The notes under the pieces: generated by a model
Database searches by the model: none
The model's input: only the letters and a program-made list of their open reading frames with translations
What the model was told of the DNA's origin: nothing
Assembly: GCF_020171785.1 (NCBI RefSeq)
Contig: NZ_JAIVAE010000008.1
Span: 186,001-250,000, forward strand
Direction: 5' to 3'
DNA length: 64,000 nucleotides
Origin: Guptibacillus hwajinpoensis
GTDB taxonomy: Bacteria; Bacillota; Bacilli; Bacillales; Guptibacillaceae
Program-made: the position numbers and the translations under genes
Shown: positions 27,116 through 64,000 of the stretch, piece by piece
How positions within the stretch are numbered: position 1 is the stretch's first letter
Layout: every line of letters starts with the position of its first letter

Positions 27116-27385
27116 AAGCCACGCCCCTCTAATAAATAGGGACGTGGCTTAACACGCGATACCACCCTGATTGAAGAAATAAATTCTTCCGGCTCGATTT
27201 GGATAACGGTTCTCCCGTTCCTGACTAGTAGGATCACTCCGTTCGTCAAGAAAGCTCTGAGGGGTAATTCACGGCTATGCTGTACCAGTTCACACCACCC
27301 ACTGGTTCTCTGCCACTACTGATCATAACGCGCTACTGCTTCCTCTTCACAGCTTTTGATTATTCCGATACATGAATTTCTCATT
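27116..27385 (-). promoter_or_regulatory. T-box riboswitch of tyrS
   Basis: The minus strand carries the T-box core AGGGTGGTATCGCG (about 27157-27170) followed by a terminator stem GCCACGTCCC...GGGGCGTGGC with TTTTT (27116-27150). A Stem I region upstream contains a UAC specifier in GAATTACC (27264-27266), the tyrosine codon. Uncharged tRNA-Tyr would pair with the T-box and favour the antiterminator, increasing tyrS transcription. Confidence 0.92.
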
Positions 27386-51709: not shown

Positions 51710-51892
51710 ATGGAAATTAAAGAATACTACTCCATTACCCTCTATAACGAAAGACGGCGAGCAATCTTTCATTCAGAAGATGAGTACGATAATTTTGAAG
51801 AAGCACAGCGTGAAGGCTATGTCTTACTTCGTAATCATCCAAAAGCAGATTTGTATTCAGTGGAACGCTTCTTTGCAGTAGAAGACGTCTAA
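51710..51892 (+). CDS. 60-residue hydrophilic protein, unknown
   Basis: A small protein beginning MEIKEYYSITLYNERRRAIFHSEDEYDNF and ending YSVERFFAVEDV. It has no signal or membrane helix and no motif. AAAGGAGAG lies before the ATG. Its stop overlaps the end of the convergent ABC-F gene by four bases. Confidence 0.6.
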   Translation: MEIKEYYSITLYNERRRAIFHSEDEYDNFEEAQREGYVLLRNHPKADLYSVERFFAVEDV

Positions 51893-53559
51893 AGTAATCT
51901 CTTTTTCTCAACTAATATCTTAAGTCTACTATCGAGATCAGCTAACTTCTCATCACCAGGAAGAAGTAAACTAATCTCACTAATTAGCGCAGAAATTTCG
52001 TTATCTAAAAGCATCTTTTGTTCTTCGTCTTTTTTTGAAGAAGCTAAAGAGCTTTTTTCTTTCATTCGACTTCGAAAATCAGATAAGTTCATTTCAACCC
52101 TTTTCACTCTTTGATCTTCAAACACTAACAACCGATCACACATCTTTTCCATAAAGTACACATCATGTGACACAATAAGTAAACTCCCTTTAAAGGATTG
52201 AAGGGTAGACTCCAACTGCTCTCGTGAAGGCAAATCCAAATGATTTGTCGGCTCATCAAGGATTAATAGATCATATTTGTTCATCAGCATACGCGTTAGC
52301 TTAAGTTTTGTCCGTTCTCCAAGACTAAGTTGGTTAATTGTGGCGTTTACTCTCTCCATTCCCATCGAAGCCAAAATCGATTTTACCTGAAAGATTTCTT
52401 CCTTGGTAACTACATTTAATACGTTAAGAGGAGTCTTATCTCCCGGAAGATCATGGACATCTTGAGAAAGATAGCCGATCTTAAGTGAAGGACTTTTCCA
52501 CACTTCTCCTTCGCTCGGTCGTTCCAATCCAAGCAATATACGTAGCAATGTTGTTTTCCCACATCCATTTTCTCCAACAATCCCAATTCGTTCCCCATAC
52601 TTCATATAGAAAGAACTTTTTCGAAATAACCATCGTTCCTCATAGCATTTGCCCGCATCCATCGCTTCTAACACTCGTTTTCCACGTGAATGGTTTTCCT
52701 GAAATTGAAATCGAATCTCTTTCTCCTGATCAGGTTGTTCTAATTTATTTTTCTGTAGTTCCTTCTCAAGTCGTTTTTGCTTTGACTTTACCTGGCGATC
52801 CATCTTCTTTGCCTTCATTCGGTAATATTCCTTATACCCATTTTGTTTGGTTGATTCCCGATGTGCTTTTTCTGACCAGTTCGTTAATCCAGCAAGCTGC
52901 TCTTCTATTCGCTTTACTTCTCTTTGTTGTACGGAATAGTGATGAAGCTGTTCTTCATATCGATTTTGCTTTTCAATTCGATACGCGGAATAGTTCCCTT
53001 GATAATCATTGATCTTACCCCCTTCAACTTCAAGGATTCGACTAGTGGTTTCGTCGAGAAAATAACGATCGTGTGAAATAACAAGAACCGCTCCTTGAAA
53101 AGAATGAAGCTCCCGAATCAACCAATTAACACCTTTTTCATCTAAATGATTTGTCGGTTCATCGAGAATCAACAAATCCGGATTCGTAGACCAAACTTTT
53201 GTGAGCGCAAGTTTTAACTTTTCACCACCGCTTAGATTCTCCGCCTCTCCATTAAGTGAACGAACCCCTAATTCCTTTTCTCTTTTGAAATCAAATGAAT
53301 CCTTATCCACTCTATGGTTCTCAATCATCCCCTCTTGATCAATCGATTGCTTTAAGTAACCAACTATTCCTTTACATGAAATAGTCCCTTCATCTGGCTC
53401 AATCTCTTTTACAATCATTCTTGCCAAAGTTGTTTTGCCAGCACCGTTAGGCCCAACGATACCAACCCGCTCACCTTGATGGATATCGATATTGACATGC
53501 TGAAATAGCCGATTTTCATTAAAATTTTTCTTCAACCCTTTGATGGACATAACGTTCAT
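51889..53559 (-). CDS. ABC-F ribosome-protection protein, VmlR-like
   Basis: A 556-residue ABC-F ATPase without membrane domains. First nucleotide domain: Walker A GPNGAGKTT (36-44), signature LSGGEKLKLAL, Walker B LLILDEPTNHLDEKG. The linker has GLTNWSEKAHRESTKQNGYKEYYRMKAKKMDRQ, very close to B. subtilis VmlR (GLASWSEKAH...). Second domain: GENGCGKTT, LSLGERTKLKLTR, LLILDEPTNHLDLPSRE. VmlR frees ribosomes from virginiamycin M, lincosamides and pleuromutilins. The linker and the long inducible leader support a resistance role. GGGGAG lies five bases before the ATG. Confidence 0.87.
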   Translation of the reverse strand: MNVMSIKGLKKNFNENRLFQHVNIDIHQGERVGIVGPNGAGKTTLARMIVKEIEPDEGTISCKGIVGYLKQSIDQEGMIENHRVDKDSFDFKREKELGVRSLNGEAENLSGGEKLKLALTKVWSTNPDLLILDEPTNHLDEKGVNWLIRELHSFQGAVLVISHDRYFLDETTSRILEVEGGKINDYQGNYSAYRIEKQNRYEEQLHHYSVQQREVKRIEEQLAGLTNWSEKAHRESTKQNGYKEYYRMKAKKMDRQVKSKQKRLEKELQKNKLEQPDQEKEIRFQFQENHSRGKRVLEAMDAGKCYEERWLFRKSSFYMKYGERIGIVGENGCGKTTLLRILLGLERPSEGEVWKSPSLKIGYLSQDVHDLPGDKTPLNVLNVVTKEEIFQVKSILASMGMERVNATINQLSLGERTKLKLTRMLMNKYDLLILDEPTNHLDLPSREQLESTLQSFKGSLLIVSHDVYFMEKMCDRLLVFEDQRVKRVEMNLSDFRSRMKEKSSLASSKKDEEQKMLLDNEISALISEISLLLPGDEKLADLDSRLKILVEKKRLL

Positions 53560-53564
53560 CGAAT

Positions 53565-53815
53565 CTCCCCATTCTCCATTTCATTTATGGGGGGAGTAAA
53601 AAACCTCCCCATTGTCTGGAGAGGTCCGTCAATCCATGTACCTACGCACGCTAAAAAGAATGCATCTAAAAGTAGCACATTTCAGCAAGCATGGAAGGCT
53701 AAAAAAGACAGACTAATCCTATTCTCCAGAATCTCAATTTCATTTATTGAAAGTTGATCTGAAAAAATAAGATTAGTTTTCCATCGCTTCTTAACCATTC
53801 CCTTCGTCTTTTGTT
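53565..53815 (-). promoter_or_regulatory. attenuator leader of the VmlR-like ABC-F gene
   Basis: About 250 bases between promoter and start. Hairpin 1 pairs 53712-53729 with 53759-53777 and is followed by TTTTTT (53701-53706). Hairpin 2 pairs 53618-53625 with 53603-53610 and is followed by TTTTTT (53598-53603). The next element CTCCCCCCAT (53587-53596) can pair either with the right arm of hairpin 2 or with the ribosome site AATGGGGAG (53565-53573). This gives two terminators and a translation block, a pattern of drug-induced attenuation. Short ORFs (53699-53743, 53666-53692) lie in it without clear ribosome sites. Confidence 0.75.
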
Positions 53816-53821
53816 GTCATT

Positions 53822-59835: not shown

Positions 59836-59866
59836 AATAAAAAAGAACCTCTCGAAAGAAGTTCTT
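59836..59866 (-). terminator. terminator of the ABC-F/AAC(3) operon
   Basis: AAGAACTTCT/AGAGGTTCTT stem with a TTCG loop and TTTTTTATT on the minus strand. It lies about 120 bases after the AAC(3) stop; no other gene occupies the space. Confidence 0.8.
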
Positions 59867-59988
59867 TACATTAAATCGGTTACAGCACCTGTATCATTTT
59901 AGCTCCTAAAGTACCATTTACTTTATGAGGCATTTGTACGAATGGAGAAAAGGTATATAGCTAAACTGTTAACTTATTATAACGGCTA

Positions 59989-60792
59989 TTAAAAACGTTC
60001 TGCATACCATTCCCGTCCAAATTCGACTACCTTTCTCTGATCAAACAACTTGCATACAGCACCTCCAATTTTCATTGTTTGATAGTTTTCCATTCTCTCA
60101 AATTCATAGCCGATCTTCTCGAAACATTCTGAATCGTAGTCCATTTCGCTGTAGGTTTTCCAAACCCTCTCACCATTCTCCATCAACGCCGCTGATTTTG
60201 TAACGTATACTTGATTTTTTTTCGCATGCTCAGATAAATGAAGTGAGGTATTGCTCTCATGGCCAACACCTATGAAAAGAATTTTTCCATTTAGCTCGTA
60301 AATTTTAGCTAGAGGCGATGTCTCTCCAAATCCTGCTTGGAGCGGTTGATGCTCCGTCACGTACTCTTTGTTCTTCCCCCAAGCTGTAAAAGAGTACATT
60401 GGATGATGACTTCTTACGACCCCTGGAAATCGTCTGAAAAGCTCAGCAATCGCGCCCATACCTCTTGTTGCTGTTGTTTCGCATGAGAAGGCCGGCATAT
60501 TTTCACGAATAACTGGCCACCATGATTCAGGAACAGGGGGTGCCATCCAATCTGCCGGATCTGAATTACCGGCAGATTGAGCAGGCATGACGAGCGTCCC
60601 ATCTTCTCCAACCGCTTCCATAAGCGCTTGAATAACGGCTTCAGCACCTCCGCATACCCACCCAAGTGAACTAAGTGAAGTATGCACAATTAAAGTCATC
60701 CCTTCCTTTATCCCTAACTCGCGAAAGTCCGCTACAAGACTACTGACTGTGTGTGGCATACAAACCGTATGAATCGCTTTTTTTTCTGTCAT
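59989..60792 (-). CDS. aminoglycoside 3-N-acetyltransferase-family protein (YokD-like)
   Basis: A 267-residue member of the AAC(3) family (Antibiotic_NAT). HTSLSSLGWVCGGAEAVIQALMEAVGEDGTLVMPAQS, TRGMGAIAELFRRFPGVVRSHHP and TSLHLSEHAKK match the family's acetyl-CoA and substrate sites, and the whole length resembles B. subtilis YokD. It may acetylate aminoglycosides or another amine. Its start overlaps the ABC-F stop by four bases (ATGA), so both depend on the same inducible leader. This link to an ABC-F gene is the main hint for a drug-response role. Confidence 0.85.
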   Translation of the reverse strand: MTEKKAIHTVCMPHTVSSLVADFRELGIKEGMTLIVHTSLSSLGWVCGGAEAVIQALMEAVGEDGTLVMPAQSAGNSDPADWMAPPVPESWWPVIRENMPAFSCETTATRGMGAIAELFRRFPGVVRSHHPMYSFTAWGKNKEYVTEHQPLQAGFGETSPLAKIYELNGKILFIGVGHESNTSLHLSEHAKKNQVYVTKSAALMENGERVWKTYSEMDYDSECFEKIGYEFERMENYQTMKIGGAVCKLFDQRKVVEFGREWYAERF

Positions 60793-62642
60793 CTCTCTTC
60801 CCCCATTAACATTTCATATAATTGTTCTCGTTTTAAACTTAGCTGTTCTTTCTCAACAAATAAATCCTGATATTCTCTTCTGCAATTCGTCACGCTTATT
60901 AGCTGATCAATTTCAAAAAGACGTCCCTCGAGTTTTTCGACTTCTGCTTCTGCATCAAGCCCTACCTCCGCTTCCACCGGATCCGTTTTAGTCTTCTTCT
61001 TTTTAACCGTAGATTCTTTTTCCTGCTCAAAGGTTTGAAGGTGCTTTTGTTTTGCCTCACTGTAAGGATAAATATAGTGGTGGAGATGAATATTTTCTAT
61101 CCAGTACGTTACCGGAAAACATTTATTTAAAAAATAGCGATCATGAGAGACACAAATAATGGTACCTGTAAATTTATCGAGTGCATCTTCTACTATTTCT
61201 CTCGAGTCAATATCGAGATGATTTGTTGGCTCATCAAGTACTAATAAGTTCAGCTTCTGACTCATTAACTGGGCCAATCCCAGTCGCATTTTCTCCCCAC
61301 CGCTTAATGATGATACTTTCGAAAAAACGCTGTAACCATAGAAAAGAAAGCTGGCTAACTCATGCCTTGCATCTGATTCAGAAACCTTTGCAATATCCCG
61401 ATACGCATCAATAACTCTCTTCTGTCCACTTTCTTTCAAAACATGTTGAGACAGATAACCGACTTTTACGCTTCCACTTATGCTCACCTTTCCGTACTGA
61501 GGCGGAATTGAGCCAAGTAGCGCTTTCAAAAGCGTTGTTTTCCCACTTCCATTTTTCCCTACTATCGCCACACGTTCCCCGTAACGAATGTGCAAGTTAC
61601 TACTCTTTACTAATGATCGTCCTTGATAACCAATTGAAACATCTTCAAAACGAACGACATCTTTTCCGCTTCTCTCATTCAAATCGAATTGCAATCCCAT
61701 TTTTCTTCTTTCTAGAAGAGGTCGCTTGATTTTATCGATGCGTTCAAGCGCTCTTTCCATATTCCTCGCCCGTTTGTGAAGCGCAGCATTCGGTGGATTC
61801 GCTTGATTTGCCCATTCTTTTAATCGTTTAATGGCTTCTCTCATTTTCTTTATTTTCTTTTGTTGCTCTTGATAAGCTTCAAATTCAGCTAGCAACAATT
61901 TTTCTTTCTTTTCTACAAAACCACTGTAGTTTCCTTGATAAACATGTAATTCACCATCTTCCAGGTCCATTATTTTCGTCACAACTTCATCAAGAAAATA
62001 GCGATCATGTGAAACAATGACAATCGTACCCTTATATTGCTGCATAAACGTCTCCAGCCATTCCACTGCTTCCACGTCCAAATGGTTAGTTGGCTCATCT
62101 AGTAACAATAATTCAGGTTCTTGAAGCAATAACATACCAAGACTGACTTTCGTCTTCTCCCCACCGCTCAGTCGATCAAAGGATGTAGAAAGAAGGTCCT
62201 TGATCCCAAGTCCATTTGCGACATAATTTATAGACGAATCAATTTCATATCCACCTTTTCTCGTAAAAACCTCAAGCAGTTGTCCATATTCCTTTAACGT
62301 GCGATCATTCTCATCCCCTCTCCCCATTTCCGATTCGAGTTCGCTCATTCGCTCTTGCATTGTAATAAGGTTAGTGAAAGCTTTTCTAAGAACTTCTTTA
62401 ACTGCTAAATCAGAATCACTCGCACTTTGCGCTAAATAACCAACTTTTGTTCCCTTCTTATAATGGATCACACCATGATCAATTGATTCAATTCCCGCTA
62501 TAAGTTTTAAAAGAGTCGTTTTTCCACTTCCGTTCCTACCTACGATTCCAACTCTGTCATTCTCCATTACTTCAAATGAAAGATCCTCAAATAAGCTATT
62601 TCCACCAAGCATTTTACTAATTCTTTGTGCAGTACATATCAT
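60789..62642 (-). CDS. ABC-F ATPase (duplicated, soluble)
   Basis: A 617-residue ABC-F protein without membrane domains. First half: GRNGSGKTT, LSGGEKTKVSLGM, LLLLDEPTNHLDVEAVEW; second half: GKNGSGKTT, LSGGEKMRLGLAQ, LLVLDEPTNHLDIDSRE. The long charged linker with KKIKKMREAIKRLKEWANQANPPNAALHKRARNMERALERI is similar to YdiF-type proteins, and a coiled-coil C-terminal domain (about 520-617) follows. It acts on the ribosome; whether it protects from a drug or aids translation is unclear, but the attenuator leader and the AAC(3) partner point to resistance. ATG 62642 with AAAGG nine bases before is preferred over an upstream start. Confidence 0.87.
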   Translation of the reverse strand: MICTAQRISKMLGGNSLFEDLSFEVMENDRVGIVGRNGSGKTTLLKLIAGIESIDHGVIHYKKGTKVGYLAQSASDSDLAVKEVLRKAFTNLITMQERMSELESEMGRGDENDRTLKEYGQLLEVFTRKGGYEIDSSINYVANGLGIKDLLSTSFDRLSGGEKTKVSLGMLLLQEPELLLLDEPTNHLDVEAVEWLETFMQQYKGTIVIVSHDRYFLDEVVTKIMDLEDGELHVYQGNYSGFVEKKEKLLLAEFEAYQEQQKKIKKMREAIKRLKEWANQANPPNAALHKRARNMERALERIDKIKRPLLERRKMGLQFDLNERSGKDVVRFEDVSIGYQGRSLVKSSNLHIRYGERVAIVGKNGSGKTTLLKALLGSIPPQYGKVSISGSVKVGYLSQHVLKESGQKRVIDAYRDIAKVSESDARHELASFLFYGYSVFSKVSSLSGGEKMRLGLAQLMSQKLNLLVLDEPTNHLDIDSREIVEDALDKFTGTIICVSHDRYFLNKCFPVTYWIENIHLHHYIYPYSEAKQKHLQTFEQEKESTVKKKKTKTDPVEAEVGLDAEAEVEKLEGRLFEIDQLISVTNCRREYQDLFVEKEQLSLKREQLYEMLMGEER

Positions 62643-62664
62643 GTTTATCATCCTTTCTACAAAC

Positions 62665-62781
62665 AAAAAAACCACAAATAAGGTTACCCCTTACCTGTGG
62701 TTTAATCTGGAATACATCATCTTTAAGCCACTATGAAGCCTCGTACTTAAAGAAAAAAGAGAACGGCAAATTACCGCTCCC
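62665..62781 (-). promoter_or_regulatory. tandem attenuators before the ABC-F/AAC(3) operon
   Basis: T1: GGGAGCGG paired with CCGTTCTC (62759-62781) followed by TTTTTT. T2: AAACCACAGGTAAGG (62689-62703) paired with CCTTATTTGTGGTTT (62669-62683), with two G-U pairs, followed by TTTTTTT. T2 ends only 22 bases before the ABC-F start, so it must be read through for expression. A nine-codon ORF (MMYSRLNHR) ends inside the left arm of T2. Confidence 0.8.
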
Positions 62782-62827
62782 TTAACTGTTCATTTATCGA
62801 TTCCGCCTGAAGCAGGGTAAGAGAGCC

Positions 62828-62956
62828 TTACGCTTTTATTTCTATGAAGTTGCTGAATTTGGACACACTTGTCCCCTCATTAGCAACTTCATGAAAAATC
62901 GCACGGCAAATCGATACATAATCCATAAATTCCGTACGAACAAAAGCGTTAGACAT
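62828..62956 (-). CDS. 42-codon leader ORF of the ABC-F/AAC(3) operon
   Basis: It begins MSNAFVRTEFMDYVSICRAI and ends SNFIEIKA. GGAGGTG stands eight bases before the ATG. It lies between the promoter at 62988-63016 and the two attenuators and covers an inverted repeat (ATGAAGTTGCT 62882-62892, AGCAACTTCAT complement 62844-62854). It resembles leader peptides that sense ribosome stalling, but could also be a small gene of its own. Confidence 0.6.
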   Translation of the reverse strand: MSNAFVRTEFMDYVSICRAIFHEVANEGTSVSKFSNFIEIKA

Positions 62957-62987
62957 CTCTTCCACACCTCCTCTAATTAATAATTCT

Positions 62988-63016
62988 ATTCTATCTGAAT
63001 GATCTGACAAAATCAA
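62988..63016 (-). promoter_or_regulatory. SigA promoter of the ABC-F leader
   Basis: TTGATT (63011-63016, overlapping the SMR stop codon), 17 bases, TAGAAT (62988-62993) on the minus strand. Confidence 0.7.
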
Positions 63017-63330
63017 CCCTCTGCTACGCGAAGCCCCACAACGGATATGACGACACAGGATATTAACACTAATTGCATTCGGTTTCTTGGTTCCTTAAAC
63101 CAGTACATCCCAATTAAAACACTCCCCGCTGAACCAATTCCCGTCCAAATGGCATAAGCCGTACCTACTGGCAATGCCTTTAAAGATAAGGACAGCATAA
63201 AAAAGCTCACCGAACCGAATAGGATCGTAAAAATAGACGGTTTTAATTTAGTAAACCCTTCAGATAACTTTAAACTAATTACACCGCCAACTTCACCAAG
63301 CCCAGCGATTAATAATGCAATCCATGCCAT
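63013..63330 (-). CDS. small multidrug resistance (SMR) exporter, second subunit
   Basis: A 105-residue four-helix SMR protein. The essential Glu in the first helix is in LIAGLGEVGGVISLKLSEGF, and LPVGTAYAIWTGIGSAGSVLIGMYWFKEP is the family signature. Paired with the gene above it, it probably forms a heterodimer like YkkCD or YvdRS; several such pairs export guanidinium or quaternary amines. The stop overlaps the promoter of the next operon. GGAGTTTACA precedes the ATG. Confidence 0.88.
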   Translation of the reverse strand: MAWIALLIAGLGEVGGVISLKLSEGFTKLKPSIFTILFGSVSFFMLSLSLKALPVGTAYAIWTGIGSAGSVLIGMYWFKEPRNRMQLVLISCVVISVVGLRVAEG

Positions 63331-63342
63331 TGTAAACTCCTC

Positions 63343-63666
63343 CTATGCTTCCTTCGCATTCAGCTTTAAGCCAATAATGGAAGAAATGAGCAATATGATA
63401 AAAAAGATTTTCATTAAACTAATTGATTCATTTAAAAACATCATGCCAATGACCGCTGTTCCTGCGGCTCCAAGTCCAGTAAAAATGGCATAGGCCGTAC
63501 CAACAGGTAAATACTTTAACGCTCTCGCAAAAAAGTAAAAACTTGTTACAATTCCTACAATCGTTAACAAACTAATTATTGGATTCGTAAATCCATCAGA
63601 ATATTTTAAGCCAATTGCCCATAAAACTTCCATCAGACCACCTATTACAAGATAAATCCATGCCAT
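63343..63666 (-). CDS. small multidrug resistance (SMR) exporter, first subunit
   Basis: A 107-residue SMR protein with four helices. Glu in VIGGLMEVLWAIGLKYSDGF is the proton and substrate site; KYLPVGTAYAIFTGLGAAGTAVIGMMFLNES is the signature. It lies 12 bases upstream of the second subunit. ATG 63666 is chosen with GGAGGAG upstream; an open frame running further back overlaps tetR and is not credible. One base separates it from the tetR stop. Confidence 0.9.
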   Translation of the reverse strand: MAWIYLVIGGLMEVLWAIGLKYSDGFTNPIISLLTIVGIVTSFYFFARALKYLPVGTAYAIFTGLGAAGTAVIGMMFLNESISLMKIFFIILLISSIIGLKLNAKEA

Positions 63667-63667
63667 G

Positions 63668-64000
63668 CTACTTCTCCTCCCTACTATAAACACCTTTAAT
63701 AAAAGCCGACCACGAATTTTCCAAACGTTTTTTATGCTCTTCAGGTGAATAATAGAAAACCTGTTCAAACACCCCGTCAAGTAGACATAAATAAGCATCA
63801 AAAACCTGTTCCCACTCCTCTTCGCGGACCATCTGTACAAGGATTGATTGAATCACCTGTCTCATCACATCTTCTGTTTTTTCAAACATAGCGTATATGT
63901 CTGATCTTAGCGATTCAGGTGGAAACAGCATCATTCGTTTAAAGATCAGACCTAACTCATCATTTCTTAAATAACCTGTGTTTTTGTGAAGCAGATAATA
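63668..64000 (-). CDS. TetR-family regulator, C-terminal part (runs off the right edge)
   Basis: The frame is open to the window end and reads HKNTGYLRNDELGLIFKRMM, then ends SAFIKGVYSREEK. The visible part is the ligand-binding helical domain typical of TetR proteins; the DNA-binding part lies outside. It is directly followed by the two SMR genes (one base gap), so it most likely represses them and responds to their substrate. Confidence 0.75.
   Translation of the reverse strand, partial: YYLLHKNTGYLRNDELGLIFKRMMLFPPESLRSDIYAMFEKTEDVMRQVIQSILVQMVREEEWEQVFDAYLCLLDGVFEQVFYYSPEEHKKRLENSWSAFIKGVYSREEK

What the first reader, a model, noticed from the sequence alone, without database searches (positions are those of the whole stretch)
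60789..63016. ABC-F and AAC(3) operon behind a 42-codon leader ORF and two attenuators
A SigA promoter, a well-placed ribosome site, a leader ORF with an internal inverted repeat, two tandem Rho-independent terminators (the last 22 bases before the gene), then an ABC-F gene overlapped by an AAC(3)-type gene. This is the pattern of stalling-controlled resistance operons. I know of no described case in which an ABC-F and an AAC(3) enzyme share one attenuator.
Basis: partly seen in the sequence, partly recalled or inferred. Interest (0 to 1): 0.75.

Follow-up and report, generated by a model that had tools for sequence, protein, structure and literature searches.

The report
Leader-controlled ABC-F and AAC(3)-like operon
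A Bacillus relative appears to keep two antibiotic-defence-type genes switched off behind a short leader gene and two transcription stops that probably open when a drug stalls the ribosome; the same leader precedes similar genes in many related bacteria.

Summary
On the minus strand: promoter-like site, 42-codon leader ORF with a strong ribosome site, two terminators, an ABC-F gene overlapped by an AAC(3)-type gene. The leader belongs to NCBIfam RAxF-45 (E=1e-17), for which my paper search found nothing. Of 99 leader loci from relatives with enough flank, 98 have an ABC-F next; one has an AAC(3)-type gene directly behind the leader. Codons 2-23, up to the RAxF motif, show protein-level selection; the rest behaves as RNA. 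The leader's start region covaries with the stretch after the ORF (z about 11, one locus per genus), forming a helix that closes over the whole ORF. The leader also resembles Rfam rliI (below gathering score), a Listeria 'sRNA' that a review calls a putative conditional terminator of an ABC-F gene. Best reading: a ribosome-stall transcription attenuator, a new variant of the vmlR/Rli53 kind, with a long arrest-like peptide and, in this genus and three other sampled genomes, an AAC(3)-type gene under it (probably recruited more than once). Inducing drug, stall site, antiterminator and the enzyme's substrate are inferred, not shown.

The parts
62983..63016 (-). promoter-like sites: TTGATT-17-TAGAAT (63016 to 62988) and overlapping TTGTCA-16-TAGAAT (63010 to 62983)
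   Evidence: not above chance as a scan; TTGATT in 14 of 14 same-genus loci
62966..62972 (-). leader ribosome site AGGAGGT
   Evidence: an SD core in 97 of 99 related loci, (starts there were chosen with the help of the SD)
62828..62956 (-). leader ORF, 42 codons, RAxF-45 family (stop included)
   Evidence: NF041642 E=1.1e-17; frame-specific selection on codons 2-23
62944..62970 (-). 5' arm of the closing helix (SD, start codon, first codons)
   Evidence: covariation over 49 genera
62809..62835 (-). 3' arm of the closing helix and candidate antiterminator strand (end of ORF and CTCTCTTACC)
   Evidence: antiterminator role weakly supported
62899..62939 (-). in-ORF hairpin A (arms 62939-62932 and 62906-62899)
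   Evidence: nearly invariant inside the genus, so little covariation
62757..62783 (-). terminator 1
   Evidence: conserved in the genus
62669..62703 (-). terminator 2
   Evidence: conserved in the genus
62753..62982 (-). match to Rfam RF01487 rliI (32.3 bits, gathering score 45)
60789..62642 (-). ABC-F ATPase, 617 aa
   Evidence: NF000355 473.9 bits (cut-off 380); model pLDDT 82
59989..60792 (-). AAC(3)-type (Antibiotic_NAT) acetyltransferase, 267 aa
   Evidence: PF02522 E=6e-90; nearest solved structures 3ijw, 2nyg, 3sma
59842..59867 (-). terminator-like hairpin after the operon

Best explanation
This is a ribosome-stall-controlled transcription attenuator. Normally ribosomes translate and leave the RAxF-45 leader ORF; its start region then pairs with the end of the ORF and the CTCTCTTACC stretch behind it, terminator 1 forms, and terminator 2 catches what escapes. 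When a ribosome-acting drug stalls translation in the leader and ribosomes occupy the start region, the CTCTCTTACC stretch is freed to pair with the 5' arm of terminator 1 (AAGGGAG), and RNA polymerase reads on into the ABC-F gene and the overlapping AAC(3)-type gene. The ABC-F would clear the drug from the ribosome; the acetyltransferase would modify a ribosome inhibitor. Supported by sequence analysis: the leader family, its coding constraint, the covarying closing helix, terminators, gene order. Inferred: drug stalling at or near RAxF, the antiterminator, resistance function, and the acetyl acceptor.
For: Leader family hit. ABC-F next in 98 of 99 fetched loci, in 79 of 79 pattern-scan loci with room (partly the same genomes) and in 16 of 16 class-level loci examined (three repeat genomes). 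Frame-specific selection: pN/pS 0.18 in codons 2-23 against 1.26 and 1.63 in the other frames, 66 within-genus pairs, not independent. Start-region/post-ORF complementarity 7.18 against 5.52 bp in shuffles, mean z=10.7, 0 of 10,000 shuffles, control region -40..-24 null (z=0.9). Terminators far above shuffles. Fold model: a ribosome at the start codon raises upstream pairing of the terminator-1 5' arm by more than 0.2 in 38 of 46 loci, more than with shuffled arms (mean 0.372 against 0.242, real larger in 31 of 46, p=1.4e-4). The leader matches rliI below threshold; a review reports rliI as putative conditional terminator of lmo2760 (PMC8079631 passages). The mechanism class is experimental for vmlR and cplR (PMC9226507, PMC10201436, passages).
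Against: No expression or drug data. The antiterminator pairing has only weak covariation (WC+GU z=2.7, 86 of 10,000 shuffles as good; WC only z=2.0, 379 of 10,000), and pairing of terminator 2's arm with the same strand none (7081 and 1261 of 10,000). At equilibrium terminator 1 still forms at 0.83-0.96 whatever the ribosome position in the four loci scanned, so the switch would have to be kinetic. A single ribosome stalled at RAxF changes nothing in the fold model (0.29 with and without); the effect needs a ribosome near the start (codons 0-4), so a queue or initiation-type stalling must be added. RNAalifold on 32 divergent leaders found 3 pairs, none covarying; MAFFT does not align the post-ORF parts. 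Inside the genus only 4 of 73 pairs have a kept double change. rliI was found in only 3 of 8 sources.
Confidence: 0.75

Rival explanations
1. The leader RNA is mainly a trans-acting small RNA (as RliI is described in Listeria) and control of the ABC-F gene downstream is incidental.
For: RliI is reported to bind lmo1035-1036 mRNA and Rli51 (PMC8079631 and PMC11394854 passages). Terminator 1 would release a short RNA.
Against: An ABC-F follows in 98 of 99 loci; the leader's first 23 codons are under protein-level selection, which a trans RNA does not need. Both roles can coexist.
Confidence: 0.07
2. RAxF-45 is a small protein with its own function (for example a partner of the ABC-F), and the terminators only set a basal level.
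For: Strong selection on codons 2-23; NCBI files it as a protein family.
Against: The constraint ends after RAxF and codons 24 to the end show no frame-specific signal (0.80 against 0.73 and 0.65). Two related leaders have an in-frame stop five codons after RAxF (L322, L323). The covarying helix covers the ribosome site and start.
Confidence: 0.08
3. The operon is ordinary constitutive resistance; the terminators serve upstream transcription from the SMR genes and the leader is a relic.
For: The leader starts directly behind an SMR gene on the same strand; the promoter scan is not above chance.
Against: An SMR gene lies within 1.5 kb upstream in 14 of 14 same-genus loci but in 0 of 42 others, while leader, helix and terminators are kept there with selection still acting.
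Confidence: 0.1

Closest known systems
RliI (Rfam RF01487), Listeria monocytogenes
   Same: In the Listeria record an RAxF-type leader ORF lies inside the rliI match and ahead of an ABC-F 50% identical to the window's over 86% of it; the window matches the rliI model over its whole length; a review reports RliI as putative conditional terminator of lmo2760 (passages).
   Different: Window scores 32.3 bits, below the gathering score of 45; the Listeria gene after the ABC-F is annotated ADP-ribose-binding, not AAC(3); RliI is filed as an sRNA. That the record's ABC-F is lmo2760 is my recall of the gene order near guaB and recQ.
vmlR attenuator, Bacillus subtilis (PMC9226507, passages)
   Same: uORF inside an anti-antiterminator hairpin, terminator before an ABC-F gene.
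   Different: uORF is three codons (MIN); here 42 codons with a conserved peptide, two terminators and a second gene. The window's ABC-F is closer to EttA than to VmlR by sequence (307.5 against 255.9 bits).
Rli53-lmo0919 (VgaL) and cplR attenuators (PMC8079631, PMC10201436, passages)
   Same: Ribosome stalling on a uORF relieves premature termination ahead of an ABC-F gene.
   Different: Three-codon uORFs; no AAC(3)-type gene is mentioned in the passages seen.
NCBIfam NF041642 RAxF-45
   Same: The leader peptide is a member (63.4 bits, cut-off 27).
   Different: The name carries no function; the link to an attenuator is made here.

Membership tests
NCBIfam RAxF-45 (NF041642) | score over the curated cut-off of 27 bits | tested here: met
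   63.4 bits
Rfam rliI (RF01487) | score over the gathering score of 45 bits | tested here: not met
   32.3 bits, E=8.8e-7, whole model 1-239; found in 3 of 8 sources (L275, L057, L085)
uORF-controlled ABC-F attenuator (vmlR/Rli53 kind) | short coding ORF with ribosome site ahead of the ABC-F | tested here: met
   translation itself not measured
uORF-controlled ABC-F attenuator (vmlR/Rli53 kind) | intrinsic terminator between uORF and gene | tested here: met
   (by sequence; termination not measured)
uORF-controlled ABC-F attenuator (vmlR/Rli53 kind) | hairpin containing the uORF start (anti-antiterminator) | tested here: met
   helix with covariation z=10.7; its regulatory role is inferred
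uORF-controlled ABC-F attenuator (vmlR/Rli53 kind) | antiterminator excluding the terminator | tested here: inconclusive
   z=2.7 for terminator 1, none for terminator 2; fold model
uORF-controlled ABC-F attenuator (vmlR/Rli53 kind) | induction by a ribosome drug | not testable with these tools
   needs RNA-seq or reporters
Ribosomal-protection-like ABC-F | NF000355 over cut-off | tested here: met
   473.9 of 380 bits; resistance not tested
Aminoglycoside 3-N-acetyltransferase (equivalog NF033082) | score over cut-off 270 | tested here: not met
   192.5 bits; Pfam PF02522 met (301 bits)

The most novel reading that the evidence does not exclude
RAxF-45 is a widespread, so far unrecognised drug-dependent arrest peptide of Bacilli. 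Its near-invariant alanine would stand at the penultimate position of the stalled chain, the context reported to favour chloramphenicol and linezolid, so the leader would sense drugs of that kind; the roughly 20-codon distance from start to stall equals about two ribosome footprints, so that queued ribosomes plug the leader's own start region and release the antiterminator. Lineages then swap or add cargo genes, such as AAC(3)-type enzymes, under this sensor.
Probability: 0.2. Interest if true: 0.8.

Novelty: new variant of a known kind. Interest (0 to 1): 0.6.

Why it matters
It joins three separate labels (an NCBI small-protein family, a Listeria small RNA and an ABC-F family) into one testable regulator spread over Bacilli, gives a conserved peptide motif that points to a stall site, and shows the same leader carrying different resistance-type genes. 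It also suggests what to look for when asking which natural ribosome inhibitors these bacteria meet.

Tried and rejected
Filing the ABC-F as VmlR: rejected, it is nearer EttA in sequence. Reading the drug class from the fold: not possible, Foldseek's top hit PoxtA is hardly ahead of EttA and VmlR2. Calling the enzyme a proven aminoglycoside acetyltransferase: rejected. One clade of all leader-controlled AAC(3)-type genes: rejected at p_AU 0.0105, with the caveats that two rows have long branches, that I had seen the tree before testing (the group itself comes from gene context), and that one gain with repeated loss of linkage is not excluded. In one search I had mislabelled two rows as operon members; corrected.

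Covariation of terminator 2 with the candidate antiterminator strand: looked for, not found. My first control (codons 2-7) was not null (z=12.0); I read it afterwards as part of the same helix, which the genus fold shows. The second control (-40 to -24) is null. In one search the antiterminator strand was placed automatically and visibly misplaced in some loci, so that test is weak either way. In one search the codon columns were shifted by trimming and were redone for the RA motif. In one search pairs of unequal ORF length, under 65% identity or identical were dropped. In one search the start codon was chosen partly by its SD score, which favours finding an SD.

A consensus fold over divergent leaders failed (alignment A3 holds 32 of the 39 loci listed, seven left out by hand). 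The structure job used 26 of the 79 pattern-scan ABC-Fs besides the window's. Staphylococcus plasmid ABC-F leaders are not detected by the leader profile.
Full report
What is there. The finding lies on the minus strand. In order of transcription: a gene with a weak TetR-like C-terminal match (20.0 bits, cut-off 27), two SMR genes, a promoter-like site, the 42-codon leader ORF (62956-62828), terminator 1 (62783-62757), terminator 2 (62703-62669), an ABC-F gene (62642-60789) and an AAC(3)-type gene (60792-59989) that overlaps the ABC-F stop, then a terminator-like hairpin (59867-59842).

The leader is a known family with no known role. The peptide scores 63.4 bits against NCBIfam RAxF-45 (cut-off 27). 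A full-text search for 'RAxF-45' gave no paper. The family has a match in 37 of 61 genomes (own and relatives), 122 of 249 of the order (115 over the cut-off) and 66 of 250 of the class (35 over the cut-off), and in 0 of 14 control genomes each time. From the lists I picked 100 places by hand to cover genera. For all 100 a start codon near a ribosome-site-like stretch was found, the start being chosen partly by that stretch; of the 99 counted later, 93 start with ATG and 97 have an SD core.

What follows the leader. Of 99 loci with enough DNA (L112 ends at a contig edge), 98 have an ABC-F (45-100% identity; broken in L104) next on the same strand, and one, L117 of G219, has an AAC(3)-type gene starting at base 114 after the leader's stop. 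G219 has no close ABC-F of this kind (best 40%, a level at which the window's own genome also has a paralogue). Of 118 pattern-scan loci, 84 have a leader by profile; 79 of these have the ABC-F and the other five end within 360 bases. Sixteen of the class-level loci were examined and 16 have it (three repeat genomes).

The acetyltransferase. It sits right behind the ABC-F in 14 of 14 genomes of the genus and in two genomes of another family, L085 and L119; a third genome of that family, L147, lacks it there. At E up to 1e-40, AAC(3)-type relatives occur in 87 of 249 genomes of the order. Of the 30 best-scoring loci, the 8 same-genus ones have the ABC-F within 1.5 kb upstream and the other 22 have neither that nor a leader there. 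A tree rejects one clade for the 15 leader-controlled copies (p_AU 0.0105), which argues for more than one recruitment unless linkage was lost repeatedly. The closest solved structures are 3ijw/3kzl (recalled to be a Bacillus enzyme), YokD and FrbF, ahead of the AAC(3)-III group (312.7, 281.3 and 227.5 against 120.9 bits). I recall that FrbF acts on a phosphonate precursor; hence the aminoglycoside label is open.

Selection in the leader. Within-genus pairs of equal length give, for codons 2-23, pN/pS 0.18 in frame against 1.26 and 1.63 in shifted frames (66 pairs), with 211 of 334 differences at third positions; for codons 24 to the end 0.80 against 0.73 and 0.65 (71 pairs). The pairs overlap and are not independent, but the contrast is large, also in the genus alone (codons 2-23: 42 of 46 differences at third positions). 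So the peptide matters up to RAxF and the rest looks like RNA. The alanine of RA is the most conserved residue (47 of 49 genera weighted; 96 of 99 loci), with all four alanine codons in use among the 90 loci with RA. The residue before it lies at codon 18-20 in 91 of 99.

Structure. In the genus the leader folds into one long helix (62970-62944 with 62835-62809) that closes over two hairpins inside the ORF. Inside the genus most pairs do not vary; 4 of 73 have a kept double change. Over one locus per genus (49), the start region and the post-ORF region are complementary within a locus far beyond shuffled pairings (z=10.7, 0 of 10,000), codons 2-7 likewise (z=12.0; meant as a control, but part of the same helix), and the control region -40..-24 is null (z=0.9). 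For example L117 has GGAGCGAGA and L086 TGGAATCTGAGA with exact complements behind the ORF. The helix hides the leader's ribosome site and start.

Switch. In the window CTCTCTT after the ORF can pair with AAGGGAG of terminator 1's 5' arm. Over genera this pairing is only weakly supported (z=2.7) and that with terminator 2 is not. In a fold of the nascent RNA a ribosome at codons 0-4 raises upstream pairing of the arm, by more than 0.2 in 38 of 46 loci at the start codon; from codon 9 on it has no effect over the codons scanned. Shuffled arms give a smaller rise. One ribosome at RAxF has no effect; adding one at the start, or a queue of three, has (0.29 to 0.68-0.69). With the terminator complete, terminator 1 still dominates at equilibrium. 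The stall at RAxF is thus an inference from selection, and the queue an inference from spacing.

RliI. The window's leader matches Rfam rliI over the whole model at 32.3 bits, E=8.8e-7, below the gathering score. The Listeria locus L275 matches at 282.6 bits and has an RAxF-type ORF (weak profile score, 16.7 bits, E=4e-6) ahead of an ABC-F, with guaB and recQ near; that this is lmo2760 is recalled gene order. A review says that term-seq found RliI to be a putative conditional terminator of lmo2760 (PMC8079631, passages); the term-seq paper itself is not held. The passages read do not mention an ORF in RliI; three other papers listed for RliI or lmo2760 (PMC5623016, PMC4959528, PMC8407217) were not opened, so I do not claim that the ORF is undescribed.

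Drug class. Chloramphenicol stalls best with alanine at the penultimate position, and a similar rule is postulated for oxazolidinones (PMC11832420, passages). The RAxF alanine fits; the three exceptions carry glycine twice and leucine once, which do not. The predicted ABC-F model (pLDDT 82, pTM 0.66) has PoxtA as top Foldseek hit, but EttA and VmlR2 are equal for practical purposes. This remains a hint.

Judgement. It is a new variant of uORF-controlled ABC-F attenuation: long conserved arrest-like peptide, tandem terminators, and an acetyltransferase as added or replacing cargo.

Noticed in passing
window 51889-53559 (-), with 53597-53816 (-): A second ABC-F gene (556 aa) about 9 kb away lies directly behind a match to Rfam ncr1575 (66.6 bits, gathering 60), which suggests another leader-controlled ABC-F.
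   Followed up: partly
window 27135-27359 (-): T-box leader (127.9 bits).
   Followed up: no
window 63013-64000 (-): Two SMR-type genes and a weakly TetR-like gene directly upstream on the same strand; an SMR gene precedes the leader in 14 of 14 same-genus loci and in 0 of 42 others.
   Followed up: partly
L276 2590-3010 and L277 1080-1490: Staphylococcus plasmid ABC-F genes (48% and 43% identity) have a short ORF with a ribosome site upstream whose IIRNKF stretch recalls RAxF; the leader profile does not detect it.
   Followed up: partly
L117 1043-1305 (-): Match to Rfam BsrG (104.9 bits), a toxin-antitoxin RNA as I recall, in the leader-AAC(3) locus.
   Followed up: no
L322, L323: RAxF leaders with an in-frame stop five codons after the motif, in line with the C-terminal half not being needed as peptide.
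   Followed up: no
leader hairpin B in relatives, e.g. L111 and L121: In 71 of 99 leaders the in-ORF hairpin reads G(G/T)G, nine bases, (C/T)CC and then a T run of five or more, itself terminator- or pause-like; the window's leader has AAATTC there instead.
   Followed up: partly
L104: The ABC-F behind this leader is broken into several frames.
   Followed up: no
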